Of a stretch of DNA of 64,000 bases, positions 15,221-51,265 are shown piece after piece. Source of the stretch: Candidatus Eremiobacteraceae bacterium (lineage in GTDB: Bacteria; Vulcanimicrobiota; Vulcanimicrobiia; Eremiobacterales; Eremiobacteraceae); NCBI GenBank assembly GCA_035314825.1, contig DATFYX010000059.1, positions 1 to 64,000 on the forward strand, read 5' to 3'. The first letter of the stretch is position 1, and every line of letters starts with the position of its first letter. Under the pieces are notes generated by a model. It had not been told where the DNA came from. It made no database searches and was given only the letters and a program-made list of their open reading frames with translations. The position numbers were made by a program, and so were the translations under genes.

Positions 15221-15244
15221 AGCGGTCGAATTTATTCGACCGTT
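15221..15244. repeat. Family B palindromic repeat
   Basis: AGCGGTCGAA, TTTA, TTCGACCGTT: arms CGGTCGAA and TTCGACCG. It sits between the phasin stop and the intrinsic terminator. Confidence 0.8.
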
Positions 15245-15265
15245 CAACGAAGACGAGAAGCGAGA

Positions 15266-15298
15266 CCGCCGTTGGTAATCCAACGGCGGCTTTTTTTT
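15266..15298 (+). terminator. Rho-independent terminator after the phasin gene
   Basis: A perfect 10-bp stem CCGCCGTTGG/CCAACGGCGG with loop TAAT is followed by C and eight T. The T-run overlaps the TAA stop of the convergent membrane protein gene, so readthrough between the two is limited from the plus side. Confidence 0.92.
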
Positions 15299-15695
15299 AT
15301 GAGGTCGGCGCTTGCGGGGCTTGAGGCGGCGGAGGTGAGGCCGGCGGTGGCGGCGGCGCGGCGGATGGAGCACTCGTCGGCGGCACGAGCGAATACGGGG
15401 GGTCCGGCGCCGGCGGTTCGGGCGGCATGCGCCCGCCGGCCAGCGCGAGGCGCAGGCGGCGGTTGGCGAGCTCGATCGGCCAATCGGTGAACGCGAAGAC
15501 GACGAGCAGCACGAGGTTGGCGACGGGCACGAGCATCAGCAGGCTATACGCCCCCGGATAGCCCGCTTTGACCGCGATGCGCCAGTAGATCCAGATCGAA
15601 AACGCCATGATCGCCAGAATGACGAGAAACCAAACGCCGATCGCCGCTGCGGTCAGCGCGGCCCAACCCGCGTCGAGATGGCCAGCGGAGTCCAT
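15297..15695 (-). CDS. Small two-helix membrane protein with Pro-rich tail
   Basis: 132 aa. Two hydrophobic segments (about residues 12-36 and 46-72) are followed by a short basic region and a long Pro/Ala/Ser tail (about 90-132). It resembles small DUF805/DUF5684-type membrane proteins (WYWRIAVKAGYPGAYSLLMLVPVANLVLL pattern) of unknown function. It lies 9 bases downstream of the secreted protein gene on the same strand. Confidence 0.55.
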   Translation of the reverse strand: MDSAGHLDAGWAALTAAAIGVWFLVILAIMAFSIWIYWRIAVKAGYPGAYSLLMLVPVANLVLLVVFAFTDWPIELANRRLRLALAGGRMPPEPPAPDPPYSLVPPTSAPSAAPPPPPASPPPPQAPQAPTS

Positions 15696-15704
15696 TGGTA
15701 GTTC

Positions 15705-16274
15705 CTAGTGCCCTGGCTGGCCGGGGTATCCGCCGCCACCAGGGCCGCCACCGGGCCCGCCCCCAGGAACGCCCGCGCCGCCGGGGCCGGGGCTGGAGGA
15801 GTCGACGGGCGGCGGCACGCGCGAATGCTGTGCGCCCTGGAACGGTTTCTCGACGCCGTTGATGGTGATCGTGCCGAACATATCGGCGATGCCGTCGAGC
15901 GTCGCGTCGATCTTCCCGACGACCGTCGCGTCCGGAGCATTCGACGACTTGATGTCGAGCTTGAGGTGCGCGCCCTCGCGCACGCCGCTGACGATGTAAT
16001 TGTTCTTCTTGTCGGGGCTCCAGGTTCCGGCGATCGAAGTGCCGTCGGCCTTGAGGGTCATCCACGAGTATTGGATGTCCTTTTCCTCGATGATGATCTG
16101 CCACTTGCCGTTGGGGATCAACGCAAGTTCCATGAACGGTGTGGGGACCGGGGTCGGAGTCGCCGACGGCGAGGCCGCCGCGCGGGCGGTCGTCACCGAG
16201 GCCGTCGCCCAGCCGGCGAAGAGCGCCAACCCGACGAGTCCGACAAATGCGATGCCACGAAATCGTTTGACCAT
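15705..16274 (-). CDS. Secreted protein with Gly/Pro-rich C-terminus
   Basis: 189 aa. It starts with a Sec signal peptide (MVKRFRGIAFVGLVGLALFAGWATA...ARA) and a Pro/Thr linker. A compact ~100-residue beta-rich domain follows (GKWQIIIEEKDIQYSWMTLKADGTSIAGTW), then a low-complexity Gly/Pro tail. I do not recognise the domain. It probably forms an operon with the small membrane protein downstream. Confidence 0.6.
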   Translation of the reverse strand: MVKRFRGIAFVGLVGLALFAGWATASVTTARAAASPSATPTPVPTPFMELALIPNGKWQIIIEEKDIQYSWMTLKADGTSIAGTWSPDKKNNYIVSGVREGAHLKLDIKSSNAPDATVVGKIDATLDGIADMFGTITINGVEKPFQGAQHSRVPPPVDSSSPGPGGAGVPGGGPGGGPGGGGYPGQPGH

Positions 16275-16363
16275 GATGGTTTTGCTATACGACTTCGGCG
16301 CTGAGGCGACCTGGCGGGCAAGCGCGGAAGTATTTCAGCGGGCCTGCGATAAATGGCGCTTGC

Positions 16364-16819
16364 ATGAGCGCGGCATCTAGGTCGGGACACGCGTCGCATT
16401 GCATCATCTACACCGATGGCGGGGCTCGCGGCAATCCCGGACCTGCGGCTGCGGGCGCCGTGATCCTTGCGGATGACGGCCAGGTGGTCGCCGAGATCAG
16501 CGAGTATCTCGGCGTCGCCACCAACAACGTCGCTGAATATCGCGCGCTGCTGCTCGCGTTGCGGCGCGCGCTTGACGAGGGCTTTCGGCGGGCCGATGTC
16601 TGCATGGACAGCGAGCTGGTCGTGCGCCAGCTCGGCGGTCAGTATAAGGTCAAAGACGCCAAGATCGTGCCGCTGCACGCCAAAGCGCGCCACATGTTGC
16701 GCGAATTCGAAGAAGCATCGGTCACGCACGTGCGCCGCGAACAGAACAAACACGCCGACAAGCTTGTGAACGCCGCGTTGGACGCAGCCGCCGATCAACG
16801 GCGCCTGGACGAGTCCTAG
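16364..16819 (+). CDS. RNase HI-like protein
   Basis: 151 aa. It carries the full RNase H acidic set: Asp in YTDGGARGNPGPAAAG, Glu in NNVAEYRALL, Asp in CMDSELVVRQLGG and Asp in NKHADKLVNAAL. This is the short bacterial/archaeal type lacking the basic protrusion of E. coli RnhA, and it hydrolyses RNA in RNA-DNA hybrids. It stands alone, divergent from the secreted protein gene and convergent (4-base overlap) with a small secreted protein gene. Confidence 0.88.
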   Translation: MSAASRSGHASHCIIYTDGGARGNPGPAAAGAVILADDGQVVAEISEYLGVATNNVAEYRALLLALRRALDEGFRRADVCMDSELVVRQLGGQYKVKDAKIVPLHAKARHMLREFEEASVTHVRREQNKHADKLVNAALDAAADQRRLDES

Positions 16820-17202
16820 TGGAAGGGCAAGTGACCTATGGCGGGATTCGTCGGCGGAACGGGCGCGACGGGGACGGTCCTGGTACCGGATGTCGTCTTG
16901 ACCGTGACCGTCGAAGGTGAGCCTGCCTCATAGTACGCGGCGATCGTTCCCGTGCCGGCCAAGCAGAATAGGCCCTTGGCAGAGCCCAGCTTGAAATCGT
17001 AGGCGAATGGCGTCGATTCCGGCACGAGCTCGCTGGGCGGGCACGCGCTCGCGCTCGCGATCGTGATGACGCCTTTGCCGACTTGATACGCCACGATCGA
17101 GGACGGATTCGCAAGTTTCCAGGTGTATGTCCACGCACCCGAGGGGCTTGCGTCGAGCGTGACGAGCAAGCCCCCGAGCAGCAGGATCGCGATTCGTTTC
17201 AT
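16816..17202 (-). CDS. Small secreted hypothetical protein
   Basis: 128 aa from the ATG at 17202. A clear Sec signal (MKRIAILLLGGLLVTLDASPSGA) precedes a short beta-rich domain containing two Cys (SACPPSE; LFCLAG) that could form a disulfide, and a Pro/Thr-rich tail. It is 7 bases downstream of the larger secreted gene and probably cotranscribed. No family recognised. Confidence 0.6.
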   Translation of the reverse strand: MKRIAILLLGGLLVTLDASPSGAWTYTWKLANPSSIVAYQVGKGVITIASASACPPSELVPESTPFAYDFKLGSAKGLFCLAGTGTIAAYYEAGSPSTVTVKTTSGTRTVPVAPVPPTNPAIGHLPFH

Positions 17203-17209
17203 GCTCGAC

Positions 17210-18028
17210 TCACGGCCCCGGCGTTGCACCACCGTGTCGCGCGACGCATGCCTGATACTGTTCCGCGTCGTATTTGGCCGCGGCCTGATACGCGCCGGCA
17301 CCCGCCCCGGGCCCTAACTCGCCGGGAGCGGGAGGGGAGATATAGGTGCACGGATTCGGTCCGTAAAACGCGATCGCCAACAAGACCTCGGCGTTCAGCC
17401 CGGCGCTGAGCACCGTGCCCTTAGCGCTCGCGCCTGTCGTCGGTGGAAATATGTTCCAGTAGATGAAATCCAGCGGATTCGCGGCGGTGATAGCGACAGC
17501 GGACGTATTGGTGTACACCACCGTCTGCGGCGTCGCCCAACCATTCGTCGCCGGACTCACGGAAGCGATCGGCGTTCCCGGCAGCCTCTTGTTCGTGTCT
17601 ACCTCAAAGCCAAGTGTTCTGACGTTGGGGTTGCCGCCGTCGCATTTCCCCGGCGTCGTGCATTTCGGCTGATACAAGTACCACGCGGTGGCATCAAATG
17701 CGGGTTCGCTCTTCCACGTTGCAACCGACACCCCTAACGTGGTGTGGAGCTTCCCGCGAACATCCCAGAAAAGAAACGTGTAGGTCCCCTTGGTGACGGA
17801 AAGCGAGCTGTCGGCCACGAGATGCGCTGTCTTGCCGGATTCCAAGCACAGTTGCGATCCGGAACCTGGAGCGAGTTTTCCGGTATCGATGTTGCGGTGG
17901 ACTTCGGTCAGCAAAGTCCCGGGCGGACACTTGGCAGCGGCCGGCTGCGCGCCGATCGCGACCATCGCCGCGCAGAACGCCAGCGCGAGAAAAGAATGAA
18001 CGACCGTGGTCTTCGGGATGGCTGTCAT
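17210..18028 (-). CDS. Secreted hypothetical protein with conserved Cys pairs
   Basis: 272 aa from the ATG at 18028, which has GGGAG at good spacing; a GTG at 18034 is too close to it. A signal peptide (about 1-35, ending PAAA) is followed by a Cys-containing domain (KCPPGTLL, QLCLESG, PKCTTPGKCDGG, NPCTY, QACVARHGG), suggesting disulfide bonding in an oxidising compartment. The small secreted protein gene follows. Function unknown. Confidence 0.6.
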   Translation of the reverse strand: MTAIPKTTVVHSFLALAFCAAMVAIGAQPAAAKCPPGTLLTEVHRNIDTGKLAPGSGSQLCLESGKTAHLVADSSLSVTKGTYTFLFWDVRGKLHTTLGVSVATWKSEPAFDATAWYLYQPKCTTPGKCDGGNPNVRTLGFEVDTNKRLPGTPIASVSPATNGWATPQTVVYTNTSAVAITAANPLDFIYWNIFPPTTGASAKGTVLSAGLNAEVLLAIAFYGPNPCTYISPPAPGELGPGAGAGAYQAAAKYDAEQYQACVARHGGATPGP

Positions 18029-18049
18029 ATGCACTACTCCCTGTCAGCA

Positions 18050-18072
18050 GAAACGGCATGAACTACCGTTTC
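18050..18072 (-). promoter_or_regulatory. Hairpin in the leader of the secreted protein gene
   Basis: GAAACGG and CCGTTTC pair across a 9-base loop, 22 bases before the start codon. No T-run follows; it could be an mRNA-stabilising or regulatory leader structure. The remainder of 18073-18141 holds a short G/C-rich CCCCC/GGGGG inverted repeat without a T-tract. Confidence 0.3.
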
Positions 18073-18141
18073 CAGACTAACGAAAACCGAGGGCGCGTAG
18101 TTTCCCATCGGTAACCGGCTTCCCCCTGGGAGTGGGGGCGA

Positions 18142-20001
18142 TCAGGCGCTCGCCCGGGTGCGCTGCGATCGAGCCAGCACCTCAGCGGCCATCTCGTATC
18201 TATCCTGCGGAATCAGGTATGCGCCCGCGGCGCCGCGTGTGTGTTCGAGCTCCTGCAGCAGATCGCGCGCGATCGCGATGCCCTCGGCGCGCTCGTCCTT
18301 CGCGCCCTTCATGCGGTCGCGAACGGATTGCGGCACCGACATGCCGGGCACTTCGTTGTGCAAGAACTCGGCGTTGCGGTAGCTGCGCAGCAGCAGCACG
18401 CCGACGAGCACGGGGAACTTGAGCGCCGCCATGCGGTCGAGGAACGGCGCGATCGCGGCGACCTCGTAGATCGGCTGCGTCATGGCGAAGTCGGCGCCGG
18501 CCGCGAGCTTCTCGTCGAACTTCTTGAACTCGACGTCGAGATCGCGGGCCAGCGGATTGACCGCCACGCCGACGCGGAAGCGCGTCGGAGGGCCGACATC
18601 CGTGCCGGCGTGATCCTTGCCATGGTTGAGCGCGTTGACGATCTCGGTCAGCCCGACCGACGTCACATCGAACACCGACGTCGCTTTGGGGAAGTCGCCG
18701 ACGTTGCTCGGATCGCCGGTCAGCGCGAGGATCGCGGTGACGCCCAGCGCCGCAGCGCCCAACAATTCGCTCTGCAAGCCGAGCAGGTTGCGATCGCGAC
18801 AGGTGAAGTGCAGGATCGTCGCAAGCTTTGTCTCGCGCATGATGAGGTGGGCGAGCGCCGAGCTGGACATGCGCAGGCGCGCGGTCGGGTTGTCGGAGAT
18901 GTCGACCGCGTCGGCCCCTGCGGCCTCGAGAAGTTTGGCGCCGGCGATGGCCGCGGAGTAATCGACGCCGCGCGGCGGCGACACCTCGACCGTGGTGACG
19001 AATTCCTTGCCGAGCTTGCGCTCGAAACCGGTGAGCGCGCGCTGCGCGGGCAGCACCACGCGCGCCGGCTCAGGGGAAGCGGGCCGCTCCTCGGCCGCGG
19101 CCCGGACGCGCGTCGCTCGCGGTTGGACGTGCTTGCCATGCACTTCCGCGCGCATGGCTGCGATGTGGTCGGGCGTCGTGCCGCAGCAGCCGCCGATGAC
19201 GTTGGCGCCCAGTGCCGCGAAGTCGCGTGCGAAGCGGCGGAAGTACTCGGGCGACGACTGATATACTGCGCGGTCGTCGACGCGATGCGGATAGCCGGCA
19301 TTGGGCATGACGAAGACCGGCGCATCGATGTGTCCGATGACGGGGGCGAGGACGTCGAACACGCCCTGCGGGCCGACCGCACAGTTCACGCCAAGCGCGT
19401 CGGCGCCGGCTTCACGCAGCCGCCGCAGCGCCGGCAGCAGCGGATCGCCGCCCGGGGTCTTGCCGTCTTCGATGACCGACAGGGAGACCACCACCGGCAA
19501 CGCGCCGGCGATGCGCTTGGCCGCGGCCAACGCCAGCAGCGCCTCTTCGACGCTGCCGAACGTCTCGAGCAGAAGAAGATCGGGTTTGCCGGCGATGACC
19601 GCCGCGATATGCTCGGCGAACACCTCGCTTGCCTCGCCGTGCTCGACCAAACCGAGCGGGCGCATCAGCGCGCCGAGCGGTCCGACCGAACCCGCGACGT
19701 ACGCGTGAGTGCCGGCGGCTTCGCGTGCGAGCCGCACGCCGGCGGCGTTGATCTCGGGCAGCTGCTCGCGCAACTCGTGGGCGGCCAGCTTGAGCCGGTT
19801 GGCGGCAAAGGTGTTCGACTCGATGATCTGGGCGCCGGCGGCGATATAGTCGGCGTGCGCGCGCGAGACCAAGCCGGGGTGATCCAGGTTGAGCCGCTCG
19901 ACGCACGTCGTCGCAGCGGGGGCGCGCTCGAGCAGCAGCGTCCCCATCGCGCCGTCGGCGAGCAGCAGATCCGAACTCCAACGCGAGGCTATCGGTTTCA
20001 C
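18142..20001 (-). CDS. Bifunctional homocysteine S-methyltransferase / 5,10-methylenetetrahydrofolate reductase
   Basis: 619 aa from a GTG at 20001 preceded by GGGAGGG at six bases. The N-terminal half (about 5-290) is a homocysteine S-methyltransferase: LLADGAMGTLLLERAP, VNCAVGPQG and the zinc-site GGCCGTTPDHI. The C-terminal half (about 330-610) is a MetF-like TIM barrel starting FVTTVEVSPPRG, with DISDN, HFTCRDRNLLG, LALTGDP and DFAMTQPIYE. The fusion would reduce methylene-THF and methylate homocysteine, as in similar fused proteins of Firmicutes and deep-branching phyla. No cobalamin domain is present. It is divergent from the DppA-like gene with 75 bases between. Confidence 0.88.
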   Translation of the reverse strand: MKPIASRWSSDLLLADGAMGTLLLERAPAATTCVERLNLDHPGLVSRAHADYIAAGAQIIESNTFAANRLKLAAHELREQLPEINAAGVRLAREAAGTHAYVAGSVGPLGALMRPLGLVEHGEASEVFAEHIAAVIAGKPDLLLLETFGSVEEALLALAAAKRIAGALPVVVSLSVIEDGKTPGGDPLLPALRRLREAGADALGVNCAVGPQGVFDVLAPVIGHIDAPVFVMPNAGYPHRVDDRAVYQSSPEYFRRFARDFAALGANVIGGCCGTTPDHIAAMRAEVHGKHVQPRATRVRAAAEERPASPEPARVVLPAQRALTGFERKLGKEFVTTVEVSPPRGVDYSAAIAGAKLLEAAGADAVDISDNPTARLRMSSSALAHLIMRETKLATILHFTCRDRNLLGLQSELLGAAALGVTAILALTGDPSNVGDFPKATSVFDVTSVGLTEIVNALNHGKDHAGTDVGPPTRFRVGVAVNPLARDLDVEFKKFDEKLAAGADFAMTQPIYEVAAIAPFLDRMAALKFPVLVGVLLLRSYRNAEFLHNEVPGMSVPQSVRDRMKGAKDERAEGIAIARDLLQELEHTRGAAGAYLIPQDRYEMAAEVLARSQRTRASA

Positions 20002-20076
20002 GGCGGCCCTCCCTCGACGCGCCCTTTGCGGGGCCGCCGAGGATGCCCTTGTCGCGTGGAAGAAGCGCGCGTTCCG

Positions 20077-23370: not shown

Positions 23371-23371
23371 G

Positions 23372-24648: not shown

Positions 24649-24652
24649 CGGC

Positions 24653-26296: not shown

Positions 26297-26351
26297 GTCC
26301 GGGCCTTCGGTTCGGGTCTGGGCCAACCATATCACACATCGGGAGAAGGCC

Positions 26352-26380
26352 TTGCCATCGAACATATGTTCGATTATACT
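26352..26380 (+). promoter_or_regulatory. Promoter of the imuA-imuB-dnaE2 operon
   Basis: -35 TTGCCA (26352-26357) and -10 TATACT (26375-26380) are spaced by 17 bases, with the LexA box occupying the spacer. The ATG of imuA is only 9 bases after the -10 and no SD precedes it, so the transcript is probably leaderless or nearly so. Confidence 0.78.
26358..26373. promoter_or_regulatory. LexA/SOS box
   Basis: TCGAACATATGTTCGA is a perfect 16-base palindrome matching the Gram-positive/actinobacterial LexA consensus CGAAC-N4-GTTCG, placed between -35 and -10 where LexA would exclude polymerase. The genes downstream are a classic LexA regulon member. Confidence 0.9.
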
Positions 26381-26388
26381 AATCTCCC

Positions 26389-28672: not shown

Positions 28673-31600
28673 ATGCTGCCGTACGCCGAGCTCCATTGCC
28701 ATTCCAATTTCTCGCTGCTCGAAGGCGGCTCACATCCCGAGGAGCTGGTCGAGCGCGCCCGCGAGCTGGGCTTGGCCGGCATCGCAATCACCGACCGCAA
28801 CGGCGTCTACGGCGCCGTGCGCTTCGCCCAAGCCGCGCGCGAAGCGGGCATCCCGGCGATCATCGGCGCGGAGCTGACGCTCGAGGACGAGAGCCACCTC
28901 GTGCTGCTCGCGCAGAGCAAAGAGGGGTATGGCAATCTCTCGCGCCTGATCAGCCGGGCGCATCTCGACAACGAGCGCGGCCAGCCGCGCACGTCGTATC
29001 ACAACCTCGCACGCTACGCGGCCGGCATCATCGCGCTCTCCGGCTGCGAGCACGGCGCCATTCCGCGCGCCCTGGAGCACGGCGATTTTCGCGGGGCGTG
29101 CGAACAGGCCGGCGCACTGCGCGACATCTTCGGTTGGGGGAACTTGTGGATCGAGCTGCAGCGCCATCTGCTGCCTGACGACGGACCGCGCATCCGCTCG
29201 CTATGCGCGCTCGCCGGCGCGCTCGAGCTTGGGGTGGTCGCCACCGGCGGCGTCCACTACGCGGTGCCGGAACATCGCGCGCTGGCAGACGTCCTCACCT
29301 GCGTGCGCCTTAAGACGACGCTCGACGACGCGGGCACGCGCCTGCGCCCTAACGGCGAGTACTATCTGCGCCCGCCGGAGATGATGGCGCGCCTGTTCGC
29401 CGAGCACCCGCGCGCGGTGCACGCCAGCGCGGCGATCGCCCAGCGCTGCGAGTTCCGGCTCGACCGGTTGCGCAACGAGTTCCCCGATTTTCCGCTGCCG
29501 CCGGGCGAGACCGCGTTTTCCTATCTTTATTCTTTGGTGCATGAAGGCGTGCGCCGCCGCTATCGGCCCGTGACCCCCGAGGTGAGCAAGCAGATCGCGC
29601 ACGAGCTGGGCGTCATCGAGCGGATGGATCTGGCCGGCTACTTCCTCATCGTGTGGGACATCGTGCGCTTTGCGATGGAGCGCGGCATCTTCGTCCAGGG
29701 GCGCGGCTCGGCCGCCAACTCGGCGGTGTGCTACGCGCTTCACATCACCAACGTCGATCCAGTGGGCTTGAAGATGCTCTTCGAGCGCTTCTTGTCCGAA
29801 GAGCGCGCCGAGCTGCCCGACATCGATATCGACTGTCCGTCGGGCGACCAGCGCGAGCAGATCATCCAGTACGTCTATCAGCGCTACGGGCGCGAGCACA
29901 GCGGTATGGTGGCTGAAGTGATCAGCTACCGGGCGCGCTCGGCGGTGCGCGACATCGGCAAAGCGCTCGGCCTGTCGCTCGATCAAGTGGACGCCCTCGC
30001 CAAGTCGCTCGACAGCTATTCATCCGTGCGCGTCGGCGAAGAGGCGGCGCAGATCGCGCAAGCGACGGAGGGCGTACCCAAACACGAGGCGATGCAGGTG
30101 ACGCAGCACGGGGAACCGCTTGCGCTGTCGGCCGCGGACGTCGAGGGCGCGATCGCCGCGCTGCCCTCGGCGCTGGCGGTCGAGGGCGGCAGCGGCGTCG
30201 CCCAGCGGCTGTACGAGTTATGCGCGCGCATCGACAGCTTTCCGCGCCATCTGAGCCAGCACGTCGGCGGCATGGTGATCACGCGCTCGCCGCTCATCGA
30301 GGTGGCGCCGCTCGAAAAGGCCGCCATGCCGGACCGCACGATCGTGTGCTGGGATAAGGACGACTGCGCCACGCTCGGGCTCATCAAGATCGACATCCTC
30401 GGCCTGGGCATGCTCGACGCCATCGAGATCGCGCTCGAAGAGATCAAACGCGTGCGCGGCGAGACGGTCGATCTGGTGGACCTGCGCGCCTGCGACGATC
30501 CCGGCGTCTACGACATGCTGTGCGCCGCCGATACGGTGGGGCTGTTCCAGGTCGAATCGCGCGCGCAGATGGCCACCCTGCCGCGCCTCAAGCCGCGCAA
30601 CTTCTACGACATCGTGGTCGAAGTGGCGATCATCCGGCCGGGTCCGATCCAGGGCGACATGGTGCATCCGTACATCCGCCGGCGCAAAGGCCTCGAGCCG
30701 GTCACGTATCCCCATCCGTCGCTCGTGCCGGTGCTGGAGCGCACGCTCGGCGTGCCGCTGTTCCAAGAGCAGGGCATGCGCATGGCGGTCGAGACCGCCG
30801 GCTTCACGGCCGGGCAAGCCGACGAATTGCGCCGCGCCATGGGGCACAAGCGCTCGTATGAGAAGATGGAGCGCCTCAAAGGACGCTTGATCGAAGGCTG
30901 GGCCAAAAACGGCATCACCCACGACGTCGCCAAGCGCCTGTTCCAGATGCTCAGCGCGTTCGCCGATTTCGGCTTTCCCGAATCGCACGCGGCGTCGTTC
31001 GCGCTCATCGTCTACGTCTCGGGCTATCTCAAGCGCTACTACGCGCCGGAGTTCTTCGCGGCGCTGCTCAACGCGCAGCCGATGGGTTTCTATTCGCCCG
31101 AATCGCTGATCGCCGACGCGCGCCGCCACAACGTGGCGATCCTGCCGCCGGACGTGAACGCGTCGCACTACCCCTGCACCGTCGAACCCATCCGCTCGCG
31201 CGAACCGATGGAGCAGCCGGATGTATCCGACCGGCCGTCCGAATGGCGCCACCCGGTCGCCATGCGCATCGGGCTGAGCCAAGTGCGAGGCATCGGCGCC
31301 AAACACGAAGAGATGCTCGAGGCGCAGCGCGTCGCCGGCCCCTACCGGGATCTGCGCGATTTCGTGCTGCGCACCGGGCTGCCCAAGGACGTGCTCGAGT
31401 CGCTGGCCGCCGTCGACGCGTTCGCCTGTTTCGACCTGTCGCGCCGCCAGGCGTTATGGGAGGTGCAGCGCATGGCGGAGCTGCCGCGCGTGGGTGGACT
31501 CGAACGCGACATGACGATTGACGAGCCGGCGGTCGTGCTGCCGCACATGCATCAAGTGGAAGAAGCGGCCGCCGATCTATGGGGCCTCGGCCTATCCACC

Positions 31601-37594: not shown

Positions 37595-37598
<4 letters not shown>

Positions 37599-38761
37599 GC
37601 GAGGCGCGCCTGCGGCCTCGCCGCCCCGAGCGCGCGCGCCATCCATGGATCTTCGCGGGCGAGATCGCGCAGCTGCCGGATGCGCCCGACGGCGCGTGCG
37701 TGCGCGTGCTCGACCATCGCGGGCGCTTCTTCGCGGTGGCGTATCTCAACCGGCGCTCGAAGATCTCGTTGCGCGTGCTTTCGTGGCGCGACGAGGGGGT
37801 CGACGCGCAGTTCTGGCACCGGCGGCTGCAAGCGGCGGTAGGTCTGCGCGCGCCGGTGCCGGCCGACGGCGGCCGGCGCATCGTCAACGCCGAGGGCGAC
37901 GGCGTGCCGGGCTTGATCGTCGACTGGTACGCGGGTTTCGTGGTGATCCAGATCTCGACGCTGGGCATCGACACGGCGCGCGCCGACATCGTCGCCGCCC
38001 TCGAGGACCTGCTTGCGCCGCGCGGCATCTACGAACGCAGCGACGTGCCCGAGCGCTCGCTCGAAGGTCTCGCACCGCAGATCGGCGTGCTCGCGGGCGC
38101 GCCGCCGCCTGAGCTCGTGGAGATCGTCGAGGAACCGGCGCGCCTGCTCGTCGACGTCGCGCACGGGCAGAAGACCGGCCTGTTCCTCGACCAGCGGCTC
38201 AACCGGGCGGCCGCGGCGCGTTACGCTGCCGGCAGGCGCGTGTTGAATTGTTTCGCATACTCGGGCGGCTTCGGCGTGCACGCATGCCTCGCGGGCGCAA
38301 ACGAGGTCGTCAACGTCGACATCTCGCCGGAAGCGTGCGAGCTGGCACAGCGCAACTTCGAGCACAACGGGTGCACGAATGCGTCGTTCGTCGAGGCCAA
38401 CGCGTTCGATTGGCTGCGCCAGGCCAGCGACGGCGACGAGATCTTCGGCATGGTCATCTTGGACCCGCCTTCGTTCGCGCGCGGCAGGGGCGCGCTCGAA
38501 GGCGCGCTGCGCGGCTACAAAGAGATCAATCTGCGCGCGCTCAAGCTGCTGCGCCCGGGCGGCATCCTCGTCACGTGTTCGTGCTCGCGTCCGGTCACGC
38601 GCCGGCTTTTCGGCGAGGTCATCGCGGATGCGGCCGCCGACGCGCGGGTCGAGCTGCAGCTGCTCGAAGACCGGGCGTTGCCGCCGGATCACCCGATCCT
38701 GATGTCAGCGGCCGAAACGGCTTATCTGAAATGTCTGATCGTGCAGGTGGCGGTCGAATAA
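37595..38761 (+). CDS. Class I SAM-dependent rRNA large-subunit methyltransferase (RlmI-type)
   Basis: 388 aa from TTG 37595, overlapping the clpB stop. A PUA domain at the N-terminus ([38 protein letters not shown]) is followed by a methyltransferase fold: [20 protein letters not shown] for SAM binding, [36 protein letters not shown], and the Cys in [11 protein letters not shown] expected for m5C chemistry. The target is probably 23S rRNA cytosine, as for RlmI. Its stop codon lies inside a family B repeat. Confidence 0.87.
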
Positions 38762-39275: not shown

Positions 39276-40642
<1,367 letters not shown>

Positions 40643-40646
<4 letters not shown>

Positions 40647-43600
40647 TGAGCTTCCTTATAGACCGGTTGCGACAGCGCTTCGCGCACGATGCGCTCTTGC
40701 TCGACCGCGTGCGCTCCAGGATAACCCTCGCTCGGGCTGGCCCGGTCCGGCCGTCCGACATAGCCGAAGGCGATGTTCTGCGGCGTGAGCCGTTCGCGCA
40801 GCCGGCGCGAGACGAACGCGCGCGCGCCCATGTTCTTTGGCTCCTCTTGGACCCACGCGACGGTGGTCAGCGACGGATACGACTTGACCAGCGCGAGCAC
40901 GTCGTCGAGCGGGAACGGCTCGAGCAGTTCGACGCGCGCGAGCGCGAGGTCGGTGGCCGCCTGGCGCAGCGGATCGAGGCTCAAGTCGTAATAGATCTTG
41001 CCGCTGCACAGGATGAGGCGTTGGATCTTGGAGCGGTCGCGCACGTTGGGATCGTCGATGACGGCCCGGAAGCCGCGATCGGTGAAATCGGTCAGCGTCG
41101 AGCTGGCGGCCTTGAGACGCAGCAGACTCTTGGGCGTCATGACGACGAGCGGGCGCGCTTTGGCATTGAGCGCCTGATCGCGCAAGAGGTGGAAGTACTG
41201 CGCCGGCGTCGTCGGATCGGCGATGCGCAAGTTGTTGTCGCCTGCCAGTTGCAAGAATCGTTCCAAGCGCGCGCTCGAGTGCTCGGGTCCCGCGCCTTCG
41301 TAGCCGTGGGGCAGCAGAAGGGTGAGCCGCGGCGATTCGCCCCACTTGGCCTGCCCTGCCGAGATGAACTGGTCCATGATGATCTGCGCGCCATTGAAGA
41401 AATCGCCGAACTGGGCCTCCCACAGCACCAGCGCATCGGGTGCCGCGGCGCTATAGCCGTATTCGAAACCGACGCACGCGTACTCGGACAGCGGGCTGTT
41501 GTGCACCTCGAACGACGCGCGCGCTCCGCCAAGGTGCTGCAACGGGGCATAGCTCTCGCCGGTCTTGGGGTCGTGCAGCACGATGTGGCGGTGGCTGAAC
41601 GTGCCGCGCTCGGTGTCTTGGCCGGTGAGGCGCACCGGTGTGCCGCTTTGCAGCAAGGAGCCGAACGCGAACGCCTCGCCCAGCGCCCAGTCGATGTCCC
41701 CGCCGGGCGCGAGCGCGCTGCGCCGCCGTTCGAGCTGTCGCGCCAATTTTGGATGGACCGTGAATCCGTCGGGCACCGCCAGCAGCTGGTCGTTGAGCTT
41801 GCGCAGCGCCTCGGCTGGCACGCGGGTGTCCATCGGTGCAGCATCGGATGCGCCGTTCTTGCCCGGCTCGACGGCCGGTTGGCGCTGCTGCGCGCCCTTG
41901 ACGGCCGCATGCGCGCCCTCGATGCGCCGCTGCGCATCCTCGACCAGTCTTGTGGCGTCGTCCTCGGAGATGATCCCGCGCTCGATCAGCCTGCGCGCGA
42001 AGATCTCGCGCACCGTCGGATGGTTCTTGATGCGTTCGTACATGATCGGCTGCGTGTACGCCGGTTCATCGGTCTCGTTGTGCCCGAAGCGGCGATAGCC
42101 GACCAAGTCGATCAGGATGTCGCGCTTGAACTGTTTGCGGAAGGAGACGCACAGACGCACCGCGGCGATGCAGGCCTCGACGTCGTCTGCGTTGACGTGG
42201 ATGATGGGGATGTCGAAGCCTTTGGCGAGATCGCTCGCGTAGCGCGTCGAGCGGCCTTCGCCCGGCGTCGTCGTGAATCCGATCTGGTTGTTCGCGATGA
42301 TGTGGATCGTGCCGCCGGTCGTATAGCCGGGCAGCGACTGCATGTTGAGCACCTCGGCGACGACGCCTTGCGCAGGAAATGCCGCATCGCCGTGGATGAG
42401 CAGCGCGGCGGCCTTTTGCGCGTCGACGACCGCGATGTTGTGCGTGCGATCGGTCTGCGCGGCGCGCGTGCGCCCCTCGACGACCGGATCGACGGCCTCG
42501 AGGTGGCTCGGGTTCGATGCCAGGACGACGCGCACGTTCTTGCCTGCCGGGGACTGGCGCACGCCCTGCGCTCCCTGGTGATACTTGACGTCGCCGGTCA
42601 CGTCGCCCGGCAGATCGCTGTCGCCGCGCTTCTCCGCGACCTCGAACTCGCGCAGCGCCTCCTCGAACGGCTTGCCGACGACGTGCGTGATCACCGCCAG
42701 CCGCCCGCGGTGCGCCATGCCGAGGTCGACTTCGCTGACGCCGTCCGCAGCCAGTTCGTCGGCAGCCTCTTCCAACATCGGGATCATCACGTCGAGGCCC
42801 TCGATGGAGAACGTCTTTTGGCCGAGGAACGACTTGCGCAGATAGCGCTCGAAGGTCTCGACGCTGCTGAGCGCGCCGAGCAGGCGCAGCGCCAGCTCGC
42901 GCGTGAGCGGTTGCCGGTGCGCACCGGATTCGATCTGCTCGCGCAGCCAGCCGCGCTCCTCGTGGCGCGAGATATGCTCCATCTGATAGGCGATGGTGCC
43001 GCAATAGGTCTCGCGCAGGCGCGGCAGCAGCTCGGCGAGATTGTTCCCCGGCAGGTGGATGCGCAGCACCGAGGCGGGGACCGACTCCATCAGCGGCAGC
43101 GTGAGGCCCAGACTCGCGGGGTCGAGCGCCGGATCGCCCTCGGGCGGCTCGCCCAACGGATCGAGCATGGCGGCGGTGTGGCCGAACGTGCGGTAGCGTG
43201 CGACTAACGACGCGCCCGCGGTCGCGGCGCGCAGCAGGTCTAACGGCGCTGCGGGCGCGGCCTGCACGCCGGGGGCGCGCGTCTCGATCTTGGAAACCGT
43301 GGCGGGCCTGGGAAGCCCCAAGCTCGTGAAGAGCGCGTCGTAGAATCCATCCGCGCCATTGAGCAGTTCTTCGATGCGTCGCAGGAACTCGCCGGATTGC
43401 GCGCCTTGGATGATGCGATGATCGTACGTGCTGGTGAGCGTCATGACTTTGGCGACGCCCATCGCGCGCAGCGAAGACTCGGGCACGGATGCAAGACCCG
43501 GCGGATAACCGATCGCGCCCGTGGCGATGATCGCGCCCTGGCCAGCCGTGAGGCGTGGAACCGATGCGATTGTGCCGATGCCGCCCGGGTTGGTGAGCGT

Positions 43601-44617
43601 GATGCTCGTGCCCGCCAGATCGCCGGGCATGAGCTGGCCGGAGCGCGCCTTTGCGACGAGCGCTTCGTACGTCTTGTGGAACGCCGCGAAATCAAGTTTG
43701 TCGGCATCGCGGATGACGGGCACGACCAAGAAGCGGCTGCCGTCTTTACGCGTCATATCGACGGCCAGGCCGAGGTTGCACGCTTGGTCGACGCGCGCCG
43801 GCTGGTCGCCCTCACGCCGGAACGCAGCGGTCATCACCGGCACCTGATGGGTCGCGAGCGCGATCGCGAAACCGATGACGTGCGTGAACGAGACTTTTTC
43901 GTCGCGGCCCGCGGTGCGCAGCGCAGCGTTGAGATCGCGCCGGCGCACCTCGAGCGTATCGACCGCGATGGTGCGGAAGCTCGTCGCCGTCGGGATGCGC
44001 AGGCTCTCTTCCATATAGCCCACGAGCGCCGCGGCCGGTCCTTTGAGCGGCACGATGTTTGGAGCGGTCGAATTCACTGGACTCTCGGGAGGGGATGGAG
44101 CGTTCGAATTCATTCGACCGTCCGCCACGTCGCCCGCTGCGGATGGAGCGGTCGAATTCATTCGACCGTCCACGGCTTGACCGTCCACGTCCGCGCGCCG
44201 CACGATGCCGCCTGGTCCGCTGCCCGCAAGCGCGTGGAGCTCTATGCCGCGCAGCGCTGCCGCGCGCTTCGCGAGCGGCGATGCGGCGACGCCGGCAGAT
44301 GATTGCGCGCGCGGTAGCGTAGGAGTCGCGACGGCGGTACGGACCTGTTCGACGGCCGGAGCGCTCTTGCCGGAAGAATCGATCTCAGCGAGCGGACCGC
44401 CGACTTTGACGGTCGCCCCTTCGTCGGCGACGATCTTGACGATCACGCCGGCGGCAGGCGCCGGCACTTCGACGTCGACTTTGTCGGTCGTGACGTCCAC
44501 GAGAGGTTCGCCGCTCTTCACGCTATCGCCGACGTGCTTGCGCCAGCTGGTGACGGTGCCTTCAGCTACCGATTCGCCCAGCTCCGGCAGGGTCACGATC
44601 ACGCGATTATCAGGCAC
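40643..44617 (-). CDS. kgd: Fused 2-oxoglutarate dehydrogenase E2-E1 (Kgd-type), with lipoyl domain
   Basis: 1324 aa from GTG 44617. Domains in order: lipoyl (1-80, lipoylation site TTDKVDVE, Lys46), peripheral subunit-binding (about 112-146, SPLAKRAAALRGIELHALAGSGPGGIVRRADV), E2 acyltransferase (about 190-420, ending in the HRIIQG motif), then thiamine-dependent E1 (about 470-1324, with EVDLGMAHRGRLAVI, RRFGHNETDEPAYTQP and RLILCSGKIYYDL). Mycobacterial Kgd lacks the lipoyl domain; here the full set is present, so the enzyme may carry out complete oxidative decarboxylation with Lpd. Residues about 149-187, between PSBD and E2, contain three in-frame family B repeat copies. Confidence 0.92.
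44062..44078. repeat. Family B half-repeat inside kgd
   Basis: GAGCGGTCGAATTCACT keeps one arm and centre only; the other arm has diverged (CTGGACTC). It is read on the minus strand as VNSTAP. Confidence 0.6.
44098..44122. repeat. Family B palindromic repeat inside kgd (copy 2)
   Basis: GAGCGTTCGAATT, CATTCGACCGTC; one arm base changed. Read on the minus strand as DGRMNSNAPS. It begins 48 bases (16 codons) before the next copy, so the tandem is frame-preserving. Confidence 0.75.
44146..44171. repeat. Family B palindromic repeat inside kgd (copy 3)
   Basis: GAGCGGTCGAATTCA followed by TTCGACCGTC, arms perfect. Read on the minus strand as DGRMNSTAPS in the flexible linker after the PSBD. Confidence 0.8.
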
Positions 44618-44677
44618 AGCGTACGGGTTCGCCCCTGCCCAAGCCGACCCTGGCGCGGCCTGCGACCAAAGGCGGAC

Positions 44678-46305: not shown

Positions 46306-46329
46306 ATCAGGTTCGTGTCTCAGATCAAG

Positions 46330-48609
46330 ATGATGTCGTCCCATCGTACGCGCGTGTTCAGCGCCCGCCTCTGGTTTACCGCCTGCGCGTGCGCGCTGGC
46401 GATCGGCGCGGTCCGCGCGGATGAGCCGCCTGCCATCAGCATCGACAACGATGGCACCTTCGCGTTCCGCGCCGCGACGTTCGTGCAGCCGGCGGGCTGG
46501 CCGCTCATCACTGGCGCGCAGCGCGCAAGCGAGCATATCGGCCCGGGCGTGGAGTTCGAGCGCTGGCGGCTGTCGAGCGCGGCGGGGCCGCTCACGCTGT
46601 CCATCGCGCGCGTCGACTTGCGCGACCCGCGCGTCGCGCTTGCCGTGGGCACGCGTTATGACCGCATCGTCGGGCCCGGCGAACCGCTCTCGACGATGGC
46701 GGACCGGCGCGCCGCCGAGATCGGCATCAATGCGGACTACTTCGACATCAGCGGTGGCGGCGAGCCGACGAATCTCGTGCTGGCGAACGGCATCGTGCAG
46801 CACGCGCCCAACGGCCGCGCCGTGCTGCTGGTCGGTGACGGCAACCTTATCGCGATGGGCCCGGTGACGTGGAAGATGCAGCTCATCGCAGCGAACGGCA
46901 CGAGCATGAACGTCGACGCCATCAACGATTGGACCCACGGCTCGCGTTTGATGCTGTTCACGCAATCCTTCGGCATGCCCGGGCAGGCCGATGCCGCGGC
47001 GGAGCTCTCGCTCGCGCCGACCGCCGACGGCCGCTATCAAGTGCTGCGCAGCGAGAGCGACGCGCTGACATTCCTACCGCTGCGCCCGAGCGATCTCGGC
47101 GTTGCCGCGCGCGGCGACGCGGCGGTGACGCTGCTGCAGCAGTTCCACGAGGGCGACGTCGTGACGCTGACGCAGACGCTTGCGCCGCAGCTTCCCGGAA
47201 TGCGCGAGGGCGTCGGGGGCGGCCCGCTGTTGCTGCGCGACGGAGCGCTCTACGACGATCCGGATTCGCCGTCGCCCGAGGAGCGCGACGTGCGTTACCC
47301 GTTGACCGGCGCCGGAACGTCGGCGGACGGCGCGACGCTGTGGCTGGTCACGGTTGACGGGCGCGCGCCGGCGCGGTCGGTGGGGATCACGCGTCCGATG
47401 TTCGCGTCGTTGTTCAGCGCATTAGGCGCGGCGACCGCGATGGCGTTCGACAGCGGGGGTTCCACGGAGATGGTCGCGCGCCGGCTGGGCGATCCCCACG
47501 TGAGCGTCGCCAACGTGCCGTCGGACGGCCGCGAACGATCGGTCGCGGACGGCCTGTTCGTGCTCAACTCGGCGACGCCGGGGCCGCCGCAGACGCTGGT
47601 GCTGCGCGCACCTGCGCCGGCGGTGCTGGCCGGCAGCCACATCGCGGTCGCAGCGCAAAGCGTCGACGCGAACGATCAACCGGTGCCCACCGATGGCGCG
47701 GTCGCATACTCCGTCTCGCCGGCGTCGGCGGCCGTTATCAGCCCGCAGGGCATGTTCACGGCGCGTGCCGCTGGCGGTGTCACGGTGACCGCTCGCAGCG
47801 CTCAGGCGAGCGGCGAGCTGCACCTCGATGTCGTCTCGCGCGTCGACGAGCTGCGCATCGCCGGCGTGCAGCGCGTATATCCCCCAGGAGCGACCTTTGC
47901 GCTCTCGGTGCAGGCCGCACGCGCGGACGGCTCTGCGATCGCGATCGATCCAGATGCCATCGCGTGGTCGAGTTCCGGCGACGGCGGCAGCGTTGACGCC
48001 CAGGGGGCGTTCAAGAGCTCCGGCGTGCCCTCGCGCGCAGACGTCGTCGCGCGCGCGGGCGGAGCACGCGCAACGGCGACATTGCTGATCGGTGCCCACG
48101 AGGTGGGTCTCGGCGGTGCGATGCTGCCGGGCGACGGTGCTGGGCGCTGGCACTTGACGACCGTGCCCAAAGATCTCGCCGCGGCGTTGGATGCGGCCAA
48201 GGCGCCTGACGGTTCCCCGGCTCTTCACTTGAGTTTCGATTTCGGAGATCAGCGCGCGACACGCGCGGCCTTCATCGAAAACGACGTGCCGCTGCCCGGT
48301 GAGCCGCTTGTCGTGAGCGTGGATGCGTACGGCGACGGCAGCGGCGCGTGGCTGCGCATCGGATATCGCAACGGCGACGGCGTCAGCGACAGCATGACGC
48401 TGGCGCGCCACATCACGTGGAAGGGTTGGCGCAACGTGCGCGCCGAGGTGCCGCCCCAAGCGCGCTGGCCGATCGCGCTGACCAAGATCTATCTAGTGGC
48501 GCCCCCCTCGGAGCACTACGCCGGCGACCTGTGGCTGCGCGACCTGGGTGTCTGGTACGCCGGGCCGCGTCCGCCCGGAAGCGTCGCGCTCACGCGCGCG
48601 CGCGATTGA
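46330..48609 (+). CDS. Secreted phosphodiester glycosidase-like (NAGPA) protein with Ig-like domains
   Basis: 759 aa from ATG 46330; a second ATG follows at 46333. Signal peptide (FSARLWFTACACALAIGAVRA), then a NAGPA/exopolysaccharide-type domain (about 80-420) with GINADYFDISGGGEPTNLVL, REGVGGGPLLLRDG and AMAFDSGGSTEMVARR. Two Big2-like Ig domains follow (about 440-600), and a C-terminal beta-sandwich resembling a carbohydrate-binding module (FDFGDQRATRAAF...WKGWRNVRAEVP). It probably uncaps or modifies extracellular sugar phosphodiesters. It overlaps the convergent dehydrogenase gene by 20 bases. Confidence 0.8.
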   Translation: MMSSHRTRVFSARLWFTACACALAIGAVRADEPPAISIDNDGTFAFRAATFVQPAGWPLITGAQRASEHIGPGVEFERWRLSSAAGPLTLSIARVDLRDPRVALAVGTRYDRIVGPGEPLSTMADRRAAEIGINADYFDISGGGEPTNLVLANGIVQHAPNGRAVLLVGDGNLIAMGPVTWKMQLIAANGTSMNVDAINDWTHGSRLMLFTQSFGMPGQADAAAELSLAPTADGRYQVLRSESDALTFLPLRPSDLGVAARGDAAVTLLQQFHEGDVVTLTQTLAPQLPGMREGVGGGPLLLRDGALYDDPDSPSPEERDVRYPLTGAGTSADGATLWLVTVDGRAPARSVGITRPMFASLFSALGAATAMAFDSGGSTEMVARRLGDPHVSVANVPSDGRERSVADGLFVLNSATPGPPQTLVLRAPAPAVLAGSHIAVAAQSVDANDQPVPTDGAVAYSVSPASAAVISPQGMFTARAAGGVTVTARSAQASGELHLDVVSRVDELRIAGVQRVYPPGATFALSVQAARADGSAIAIDPDAIAWSSSGDGGSVDAQGAFKSSGVPSRADVVARAGGARATATLLIGAHEVGLGGAMLPGDGAGRWHLTTVPKDLAAALDAAKAPDGSPALHLSFDFGDQRATRAAFIENDVPLPGEPLVVSVDAYGDGSGAWLRIGYRNGDGVSDSMTLARHITWKGWRNVRAEVPPQARWPIALTKIYLVAPPSEHYAGDLWLRDLGVWYAGPRPPGSVALTRARD

Positions 48610-49558
48610 ACGCCGGCGCGTTGGCCGCGTAGCGCGGCGCCTCGCCGCGCGCGTAGCGCCGCACGTTCTCGGCGACCTCGCGCGCGATGCCCTCATACGA
48701 AAGATCGGTCACGCCTGCGACGTGCGGCGTCGCGATGACGTTGAGCGCGAGCACAGGATGCGAAGGGCCGATCGGCTCGCCCTCGATCACGTCCAGGCCC
48801 GCGCCGGCCACCCGTCCGGCGCGCAATGCGTCGGCAAGCGCGGCATGATCGACGAATCCGCCGCGCGCCACGTTGATGAAGAACGCGCCCGGTTTCATCG
48901 CGTCGAAGACGGTCCGGTCGAACATGTGGTGGGCGTCCGGCTCATAGCGCGCGGTGATGACGACGAAATCTGCACAGGCCACCGCATCCTTCAGCTCTGC
49001 GAGGCCGTAGACGTGTTCGAACGCGGCTCCGGCGGGCGCTTGGCCGCCGATATTCTTGCGGACGGCGATCGCGCGCATGCCGAGCGCTTGCAGACGAAGC
49101 GCTAACGCGCCGCCGGCGGACCCGATGCCGACGATGCAGGCGGTCTTGCCCGCGAGCGCTGTTCCGGCAGGTTCGCCGAGCTGCCCGTTGCGCAGCGTCT
49201 GCTCGGCCTGCGGCAGCCTGCGCGCCAGCGCCAGCATCAGCAGCAGCGCGTGTTCGGCCACCGACTCGGCATTGCCGGTGCCGCCGCTCGGTATGCGCGC
49301 GACCCAAACGCCGGCACGCGTGGCAGCCTCGACGTCAACCGTCTCCAGGCCGACGCCGAACTGCTGGATCAGGCCGAACGTGCCCGCGTCGATGACGCGC
49401 GCGTCGATCTGCGCCATGTAGGGTACGACGACGTCGACGCCGGGCAGGCGCTCGACGACGCGCGAGGGCGCCGTCGCCTCGATCGCATGCTCGGGCAGCA
49501 GGCGCGATAGCCGACGCCGTGCTTCCGAGTAGCCTTCATCGCAGAAGAGGATCTTCAA
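48590..49558 (-). CDS. D-isomer-specific 2-hydroxyacid dehydrogenase
   Basis: 322 aa. NAD-binding VGIGSAGGALALRLQALG, and catalytic Arg in FINVARGGFVD, Glu in DVIEGEP and His in ATPHVAGVTD, the standard triad order. Candidate substrates include glyoxylate, hydroxypyruvate or 3-phosphoglycerate; not SerA-length. The gene overlaps panB by 4 bases, so they may be cotranscribed, which raises 2-oxopantoate/ketoacid metabolism as an alternative. Confidence 0.86.
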   Translation of the reverse strand: MKILFCDEGYSEARRRLSRLLPEHAIEATAPSRVVERLPGVDVVVPYMAQIDARVIDAGTFGLIQQFGVGLETVDVEAATRAGVWVARIPSGGTGNAESVAEHALLLMLALARRLPQAEQTLRNGQLGEPAGTALAGKTACIVGIGSAGGALALRLQALGMRAIAVRKNIGGQAPAGAAFEHVYGLAELKDAVACADFVVITARYEPDAHHMFDRTVFDAMKPGAFFINVARGGFVDHAALADALRAGRVAGAGLDVIEGEPIGPSHPVLALNVIATPHVAGVTDLSYEGIAREVAENVRRYARGEAPRYAANAPAFNRARA

Positions 49559-50400
49559 ACGCGCCGGCCGGCGAGGAACTCCCTGGCGTCAGTCTCCGGC
49601 ATGTGATACGTCTCGGCGTCGGATGGAAACGCGCCGGAGCGGATGTCGTCGAAGAAATGTTCGACCGCCGCGGTCGCTTCATCGCCTAGATCTGCATAAC
49701 GCCGCACGAATTTCGGCGGTGTGCCGGCGCTCAAGCCGAGCACGTCGTGGAAGACGAGCACTTGACCGTCGCAGCTCGGGCCCGCGCCGATGCCGATCGT
49801 CGGTATCGGGATCGCGCGGGTCACTTCGGCGGCGACGACGTCCGGGATGCCCTCGAGCACGATCGCGAACGCGCCTGCCTCGGCGAGCAGGCGCGCGTCT
49901 TCCACAAGCTCGGCCGCGGCCTGTGCGAGCTTGGCCTGCACCTTGAAACCGCCCATCGCGTGGACGGATTGCGGTGTCAGGCCGAGGTGGCCCATGACCG
50001 GGATCTCGGCCGCGAGGATCGCCTCGACCATCGGCAGCCGTTTGCGCCCGCCCTCCAGCTTGACCGCGCCCGCGCCTCCTTCGACGATGAAACGCGCCGC
50101 GTTGCGCACGCTGTCCGCCGTCGACAGATGATAGCTCAGCCAGGGCATGTCGCCGACGACGAGCGCGTTCGGTTTGACGCGAGCGACGGCTGCGGTGTGG
50201 CGCACCATGATGTCGACGGTGACAGAGAGCGTGTCGTCGTAGCCGAGCACGGCGTTGCCGAGCGAGTCGCCGACGAGGATGATGTCGGCGCCGGCGCGAT
50301 CGGCGATGCGCGCCGAGGGCGCGTCGTAGGCGGTGATGACGGCGAGCTTCTTGCCGCCCTTGCGGGCGCGGATCGCCGGCGCGGTGATCTTGTCTGGCAT
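49555..50400 (-). CDS. panB: 3-methyl-2-oxobutanoate hydroxymethyltransferase
   Basis: 281 aa, standard PanB length. It has VITAYDAPSARIADRAGADIILVGDSLGNAVLGYDDTLSVT (metal-binding Asp), VVGDMPWLSY, GGAGAVKLEGG, GHLGLTPQSVHAMGGFKVQ and IPTIGIGAGPSCDGQVLVFHDVLGL. It makes ketopantoate from 2-ketoisovalerate and methylene-THF in pantothenate synthesis. No panC or panD gene is in the window. Confidence 0.95.
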   Translation of the reverse strand: MPDKITAPAIRARKGGKKLAVITAYDAPSARIADRAGADIILVGDSLGNAVLGYDDTLSVTVDIMVRHTAAVARVKPNALVVGDMPWLSYHLSTADSVRNAARFIVEGGAGAVKLEGGRKRLPMVEAILAAEIPVMGHLGLTPQSVHAMGGFKVQAKLAQAAAELVEDARLLAEAGAFAIVLEGIPDVVAAEVTRAIPIPTIGIGAGPSCDGQVLVFHDVLGLSAGTPPKFVRRYADLGDEATAAVEHFFDDIRSGAFPSDAETYHMPETDAREFLAGRRV

Positions 50401-50422
50401 GGCGTCCCCGATGTGTCCGGAC

Positions 50423-51265
50423 CTATGGAGCGGTCAAGTTTACTCGACCGTTTAGAGCGGTCGATTTTATTCGACCGCTTACGACGCGTCCTTCTTTATG
50501 CAGGTCAGAATCCGCTTCGAGATGCTCCACAAAGCCGATCGGCGCCCCCCCTTTGGCTTTCACGAGGGTGTTGTCGATGGCATAACTTTCCTGGACGATG
50601 AGGCCGCTGGCGCGATCGAACCAGGCCGAGCCGTGCAGCGCGATCGCTCCTGGCAGAAGACCCGGCAGGTTGTACTCCTTGCCTGTGATCCGGCCGCGGC
50701 CGGTCACGTCGATGCGCACCCGATCGCCGTCGGCCGTCGCCACCACATGCTCGAAGACGGCGTTGCCCGAACCGAGGGAGGTCAGCACATGTTGCTGCGT
50801 CATCCATCTGCTGCCGACAACGACCGGCTCAGCCGGCAGATCGATCATCGGCGCGTCTTCGAGCGCGTAGAGCTTCGCGCCGACCTGCACGTTGCGCGGC
50901 GTGACGAGCGCGGTACCGCTGTCATGGCTGACGGCTATTTTGTTGCGCGGCACGTCATGGACAGTGGTGGTGACGTCGCCACGGACGCGCGCAGCCGTCG
51001 CGTTCGCTGATAGAACCGTGCCGTTCGCAAGGATCGTCGTGCGCACTTCTTCGTCGATGACCATGCCTTGCGAGCGGAACGCTTCCAAGCGCGCTGCCGG
51101 CAGTTTCCAGTCGATGCGGTCGACCAGATCGGAATGCTGGACGAGGCGTTCGCCTGCGGACAGGCTCAGCCGCAATACATACGAGCCGGGCTGCTGCGCG
51201 GCGGCGCTACCCGTGATGGCCAGGCCCGCGGCACATGCGAGCGCGAGGACTCGTCGTACGTTCAT
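50423..51265 (-). CDS. Secreted hypothetical protein with repeat-encoded C-terminus
   Basis: 280 aa. Signal peptide [24 protein letters not shown] precedes a beta-rich mature domain ([70 protein letters not shown]). The last ~18 residues ([18 protein letters not shown]) are the translation of two tandem family B repeats. It looks like a distant paralog of the protein at 45493-46305. Function unknown. Confidence 0.55.
50428..50452. repeat. Family B palindromic repeat (tandem copy 1)
   Basis: GAGCGGTCAAG, TTTA, CTCGACCGTTT; both arms have shifted slightly (CGGTCAAG / CTCGACCG). Read on the minus strand as NGRVNLTAP just before the stop. Confidence 0.7.
50455..50480. repeat. Family B palindromic repeat (tandem copy 2)
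   Basis: GAGCGGTCGATTTTATTCGA then CCGCTT. Read on the minus strand as SGRIKSTAL, 27 bases (9 codons) from the neighbouring copy. Confidence 0.75.

What the first reader, a model, noticed from the sequence alone, without database searches (positions are those of the whole stretch)
15221..50480. Family B: palindromic repeats translated in one fixed frame
Seven copies (15221, 38750, 44062, 44098, 44146, 50428, 50455) have arms CGGTCGAA/TTCGACCG. When a copy is internal to or at the end of a minus-strand protein, it is read in the same frame, giving G-R-(M/I/V)-(N/K)-(S/L)-(T/N)-A-(P/L): in Kgd three times and in the secreted protein twice. In another frame it contains a stop, and that frame ends the rlmI-type gene. 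A repeat that can enter a gene and be read through in a non-stop frame recalls the Rickettsia palindromic elements, which insert in frame into proteins, but I know of no such family with this sequence.
Basis: partly seen in the sequence, partly recalled or inferred. Interest (0 to 1): 0.9.

Follow-up and report, generated by a model that had tools for sequence, protein, structure and literature searches.

The report
Orphan REP repeats read inside proteins
The repeat is a young, genome-wide family of about 200 small hairpin sequences of the known bacterial REP type, which has entered many genes, including essential ones, and is translated there as a short flexible linker; the kind is known, but the missing transposase, the altered tag and signs that some copies replaced gene sequence instead of being inserted are unusual.

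Summary
In detail: the seven window copies exist, and the genome has 198 copies (at most 3 mismatches) against 0 for a control pattern. They are REPs (repetitive extragenic palindromes): 5'-G(G/T)AG-CGGTCGAA-TTYA-TTCGACCG-3', a tagged hairpin with compensatory stem changes. Two same-family genomes (Eremiobacterota, inferred) carry over 200 copies each (per strand) of a near-identical REP, plus REP-associated tyrosine transposases (RAYTs); in G005 the RAYT is flanked by it in inverted orientation. No RAYT was found in this genome or its two same-genus relatives, yet the copies differ by only about 3% from their consensus, so they spread recently. In an 800 kb sample 28 of 91 copies lie wholly inside called genes (Kgd, FabH, NuoC, CarB and others), and 8 more supply a gene's stop codon. 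The 'fixed frame' is a preference, not a rule: GRMNSTAP 15 copies, RSNEFDRS 3, other-strand frames 10. Translated REPs and REP-supplied stops were reported before (Di Nocera 2013, PMC3733652). Least expected: in a YyaL-like gene the REP sits where 20 relatives have the same length, so it seems to have replaced sequence rather than been inserted. Verdict: new variant of a known kind.

The parts
15219..15242 (+). REP copy GTAG-CGGTCGAATTTATTCGACCG, intergenic, about 10 nt after a stop codon
38751..38774 (-). REP copy (tag GGAG on the minus strand); supplies the TAA stop (38759-38761) of the rlmI-type gene
37595..38761 (+). rlmI-type methyltransferase gene (PUA_3 and Methyltrans_SAM) that ends inside the REP
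44061..44084 (+). degenerate REP copy in kgd (right arm damaged), read on the minus strand as PVNSTAP
44097..44120 (+). REP copy in kgd, read on the minus strand as GRMNSNAP
44145..44168 (+). perfect REP copy in kgd, read on the minus strand as GRMNSTAP
40643..44617 (-). kgd-type 2-oxoglutarate dehydrogenase; the three REPs fill the linker between the E3-binding domain (residues 110-144) and the acyltransferase domain (from residue 187)
50427..50450 (+). REP copy at the C-terminus of the secreted-type protein, read on the minus strand as GRVNLTAP before the stop
50454..50477 (+). REP copy with altered tag (AGAG), read on the minus strand as GRIKSTAL
50423..51265 (-). secreted-type protein of no Pfam family whose C-terminal tail is REP-encoded; the G001 homolog aligns only to residues 1-254 of 280
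31210..31233 (+). candidate degenerate GGAG-tagged copy (4 mismatches) inside a dnaE-like gene, in a stretch that also differs in G001

Best explanation
Family B is a REP family of the REP-RAYT kind: a 24-nt hairpin element, 5'-G(G/T)AG + 8-bp stem + TTYA loop. Such elements are thought to be spread by REP-associated tyrosine transposases (TnpA-REP), which recognise tag and hairpin in single-stranded DNA. The family expanded in this lineage after its split from the same-genus relative G001. The transposase was then lost, or lies in the unassembled 3%. Most copies sit between genes or at gene ends; copies in genes survive where they keep the frame and fall in interdomain linkers, loops or protein tails, so they are read as a flexible peptide (mostly GRMNSTAP). 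Shown: tag and hairpin, copy number, near-absence in same-genus genomes, a sister REP flanking a RAYT in the same family, positions in genes, REP-supplied stops. Inferred: that a RAYT spread these copies, that it was lost, and that the peptides are neutral.
For: 198 copies vs 0 control; 184 vs 6 in G001, 0 in G002 and 0-3 in other same-family genomes at <=2 mismatches. Tags GGAG 55, GTAG 20; among 618 perfect hairpins these are the commonest tetranucleotides directly 5' of the stem. Loop TTTA 41, TTCA 34. Stem pair 8 is A-T, G-C or C-G: 88 of 91 paired, best of 2000 shuffles 80. Folds as ssDNA hairpin, z -5.7. G005: RAYT flanked by GTAG-CGGTCGAGCTTTAGCTCGACCG in inverted orientation; 282 and 319 copies on the two strands in G005, 211 and 202 in G012; a Candidatus Eremiobacteria MAG has an 81% identical RAYT in the same REP array. 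All 11 aligned proteins match NF047646, best PDB match E. coli TnpA-REP 4er8. Copies diverge about 3% per arm site. 28 of 91 inside genes vs 92% coding DNA, p = 8e-49. All 8 copies across gene 3' ends are in the stop frame.
Against: No RAYT in G000, G001 or G002 with PF01797, profile A1 or NF047646, so the mover of these copies is not shown. The majority tag GGAG departs from the published GT(A/G)G. About 31% inside called genes is far above the 14 gene-overlapping 16-mers among 1067 in P. fluorescens SBW25 (PMC3116915). At least one copy (YyaL-like gene) was not acquired by plain insertion.
Confidence: 0.86

Rival explanations
1. The copies spread, or are kept uniform, largely by in-place conversion: a single-stranded REP or another copy pairs with a partly similar sequence (an old decayed REP or a chance match) and overwrites it without changing length. 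Insertion is then only one of two routes.
For: YyaL-like gene: a perfect REP at a site where 20 relatives from several families have the same length; the same-family relatives average 12.3 of 26 matches to the REP there against 6.4 for in-frame windows of the same genes. Loop lengths in FabH (42 vs 40 and 39), TilS (26 vs 26 and 27), Kgd with three REPs (52 vs 51), CarB (30 vs 29) and the substrate-binding lipoprotein (17 vs 16) match at least one same-genus relative without REP, although the copies look much younger than the split.
Against: Clear gains exist: DAG kinase +10 aa, alanine racemase +11 aa. Most such loops vary in length anyway (Kgd 77 in G002, CarB 17 in G001), and picking the nearest relative favours a match. 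Only YyaL is clean. High similarity of relatives at a site chosen because this genome has a REP there is biased by shared ancestry; windows with GR.....P in G001 already average 10.8 of 26.
Confidence: 0.3
2. The palindrome is a host regulatory or nucleoid-protein binding site kept by selection at each place, not a mobile element.
For: Near-perfect dyad symmetry, mostly intergenic, uniform sequence.
Against: It is asymmetric (5' tag), the stem covaries as a hairpin, the sister sequence flanks a transposase, it is nearly absent in same-genus genomes, and it lies in random frames inside unrelated enzymes.
Confidence: 0.05
3. The in-gene copies are conserved protein motifs (GRMNSTAP-like) that only look like a DNA repeat.
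For: In the substrate-binding lipoprotein the relatives have GKINASAP and PQINSSTP with other codons.
Against: The same DNA is read in several frames and on both strands in unrelated proteins and lies between genes in most cases.
Confidence: 0.02

Closest known systems
GTAG-tagged REPs of REP-RAYT systems (Nunvar 2010 PMC2817692; Di Nocera 2013 PMC3733652; TnpA-REP study PMC8266576)
   Same: Size, 5' tag plus hairpin, perfect stem with short loop (TTTA, as in the Marinomonas REP of PMC8266576), high copy number, mostly extragenic, a sister REP flanks a RAYT in inverted orientation; in-gene copies and REP-supplied stop codons were already described for other species.
   Different: Most copies carry GGAG rather than GT(A/G)G; no RAYT found in the genome; larger share inside genes than in P. 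fluorescens SBW25; at least one copy acquired without length change.
REPINs (inverted REP doublets, Bertels and Rainey 2011, PMC3116915)
   Same: Hairpin REP units, RAYT-linked type.
   Different: Here copies are mainly single; close neighbours are mostly in direct orientation (14 of 18 close pairs).
Rickettsia palindromic elements (as described in PMC3733652)
   Same: Palindromic repeats read in frame inside many proteins, mostly tolerated.
   Different: RPE-4 and RPE-6 are placed there in the CGTC superfamily and RPE-1 is longer; here the tag is GGAG/GTAG and a RAYT-linked sister exists.

Membership tests
REP (GTAG superfamily) | short palindrome (20-40 nt) able to form a hairpin, many copies per genome | tested here: met
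   198 copies; ssDNA hairpin z -5.7; stem covariation
REP (GTAG superfamily) | GT(A/G)G tetranucleotide 5' of the hairpin | tested here: inconclusive
   GTAG in 20 copies, GGAG in 55; a tag is always at this place but the majority form differs from the published one
REP (GTAG superfamily) | mainly outside genes | tested here: met
   52 of 91 between genes where 92% of DNA is coding; weaker than in other genomes
REP-RAYT system (REPtron) | RAYT gene flanked by the cognate REP in inverted orientation | tested here: inconclusive
   Not found in G000, G001, G002, so the genome itself is not shown to hold a REPtron; present with a near-identical REP in same-family G005 and in L160
REP-RAYT system (REPtron) | cleavage of tagged single-stranded REP by TnpA-REP | not testable with these tools
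   needs purified enzyme
REPIN | inverted REP doublet as the repeating unit | tested here: not met
   mostly singles; 14 of 18 close pairs in direct orientation
Rickettsia palindromic elements | CGTC tag (RPE-4, RPE-6) or the longer RPE-1 unit | tested here: not met
   tag is GGAG or GTAG; unit about 24 nt

The most novel reading that the evidence does not exclude
REPs in this lineage colonise partly by overwriting: single-stranded REP DNA pairs with partly similar sequence, perhaps at the replication fork, and rewrites it in place without length change, so genes gain a translated REP with no insertion. This would account for the YyaL case, the equal loop lengths and the preference for the GR.....P frame.
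Probability: 0.28. Interest if true: 0.78.

Novelty: new variant of a known kind. Interest (0 to 1): 0.52.

Why it matters
How REPs spread is an open question. This genome offers a young, nearly uniform family of about 200 copies, a nearly empty same-genus relative, and same-family genomes that still hold the transposase, so insertion, overwriting and loss of the mover can be told apart by comparing strains. It also shows a small DNA hairpin supplying linkers, tails and stop codons to core proteins.

Tried and rejected
Rfam scan of the window: nothing. A weak NF047646 match in G001 (E 0.196) was read and looks like chance: it has a stop and no RAYT motif that I could see. Half copies: about five tag-plus-left-arm fragments stand just before full copies, with no convincing right halves; too few to interpret. 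A 3' tail pairing with GGA: no clear link between tag and tail. The whole genome was not available as a file, so stretches were used. The frame preference is 15:3 by copies (p 0.008) but only about 11:3 by independent genes (p 0.057). A promising second site of replacement, FabH, turned out to be a loop that is long in the whole genus and short outside it, so it does not separate replacement from an older insertion.

Full report
Observation. The seven copies are real. The whole genome (2.55 Mb, 89 contigs, 97% complete) has 198 places within 3 mismatches of CGGTCGAATNNATTCGACCG and none for the control pattern. Among 100 relatives only this genome is rich in it: 184 at <=2 mismatches against 6 in G001 and 0 in G002 (both same genus) and at most 3 in any other relative searched.

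Anatomy. Copies are oriented: most have GGAG (55) or GTAG (20) directly 5' of the stem. In a scan of all perfect hairpins with stems of 8-14 bp in 800 kb of this genome, made without using the repeat's sequence, these are the two commonest tetranucleotides directly before the stem. The loop is mostly TTTA or TTCA. The loop-closing pair is A-T, G-C or C-G and is paired in 88 of 91 copies, where 2000 shuffles never exceed 80. The conserved thing is a tagged hairpin, the anatomy of REPs.

Relatives. Most same-family genomes carry RAYTs; all 11 aligned sequences match NCBIfam NF047646 and the nearest solved structure is E. coli TnpA-REP. Those inspected are mostly flanked by palindromic REPs, and in G005 the flanking REP is GTAG-CGGTCGAGCTTTAGCTCGACCG, in inverted orientation on the two sides. 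G005 and G012 have hundreds of copies of it. A Candidatus Eremiobacteria MAG has an 81% identical RAYT inside the same kind of array; from this I infer that the window is from Eremiobacterota. No RAYT was found in G000, G001 or G002 with three models. RAYT loss with REPs left behind is known in pseudomonads and stenotrophomonads (PMC3686654).

Age. Arms differ from the consensus at 3% of sites, while the flanks that could be aligned with G001 are mostly 70-90% identical. Most copies therefore arose, or were made uniform, after the split. Of 33 copies with both flanks aligned I could recognise a counterpart in G001 in only about three (my reading).

In genes. My own codon-usage gene caller places 52 of 91 copies between genes, 28 wholly inside called genes and 11 across gene ends; a few N-terminal cases may be start-site errors. 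Genes hit, named by my reading of their sequences except where a tool is cited, include kgd (Pfam), fabH (PDB match), nuoC, nuoI, carB, mutS2, tilS, alanine racemase, a UvrD-like helicase, DAG kinase, a YyaL-like protein, an amidase and an ABC substrate-binding lipoprotein. On the strand where the tag comes last, frame GRMNSTAP occurs 15 times, RSNEFDRS 3 times, and the third frame (a stop in 79 of 91 copies) only at gene ends, 8 times. On the other strand the three frames occur 5, 4 and 1 times. In Kgd the copies fill the linker between the E3-binding and acyltransferase domains. In FabH the copy lies in a region where solved homologs have far fewer residues, though the loop is also long in G001 and G002.

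Insertion or replacement. DAG kinase shows a gap of 30 nt (+10 aa) and alanine racemase +11 aa against G001. The YyaL-like gene does not: 12 same-family and 8 more distant orthologs have the same length across the site, with the conserved R and P kept. Several other loops with REPs match the length of at least one same-genus relative without REP. Either sequence was overwritten in place, or some loops grew from older REPs in the genus and were refreshed in this genome. Gene conversion of REPs was raised in 1988 (title of a review by Higgins and others in the reference list of PMC3116915); colonising a non-REP site in a gene in place is not described in the parts of the papers I read.

Known or new. 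REPs inside ORFs, REP-encoded amino acids and REP-supplied stops are in Di Nocera 2013. New here, as far as I could check: the family itself, the GGAG tag (no occurrence of that string in four REP papers searched), the missing RAYT beside young copies, and the length-neutral case. A search for Eremiobacterota together with REPs found no paper.

Noticed in passing
window 11005, 11030 (-), 11736, 23682, 53067, 53669: A second REP-like family, GTAG-T-CCCGCGCTC-TT-GAGCGCGGG with a CCCGGCCTC variant: 6 matches against 0 expected.
   Followed up: partly
L221 (G002), nuoC loop: A different palindrome (GTAGTAGCG.GTTCTT ... AAGAACGCGCTACTAC) occupies the same nuoC loop that holds the family-B copy in this genome; related GTAG-tagged GCGCGTTC hairpins occur in this genome.
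   Followed up: partly
L127 and L086 (G001), aligned with G000 C34:63875 and C23:1437: At some intergenic places where this genome has family B, G001 seems to have another palindrome (for example GCCGGGCTTTTGAGCCCGGC), as if REP families replace each other in place.
   Followed up: no
L234 (G001) and L236 (G002), substrate-binding lipoprotein: GKINASAP and PQINSSTP stand where this genome has the REP-encoded GRMNSTAP, with other codons: possible remains of an older REP.
   Followed up: partly
G000 stretches: C34 near 55091, C7 near 46330, C9 near 6480, C6 near 17789, window 44060: About five truncated copies (tag plus left arm only) stand 20-40 nt before a full copy in the same orientation; no convincing right halves were seen.
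   Followed up: partly
window 10268-12597: Two neighbouring related genes (repeat pairs D1, D4, D11, 71-76% identical, about 1.59 kb apart) with second-family palindromes nearby.
   Followed up: no
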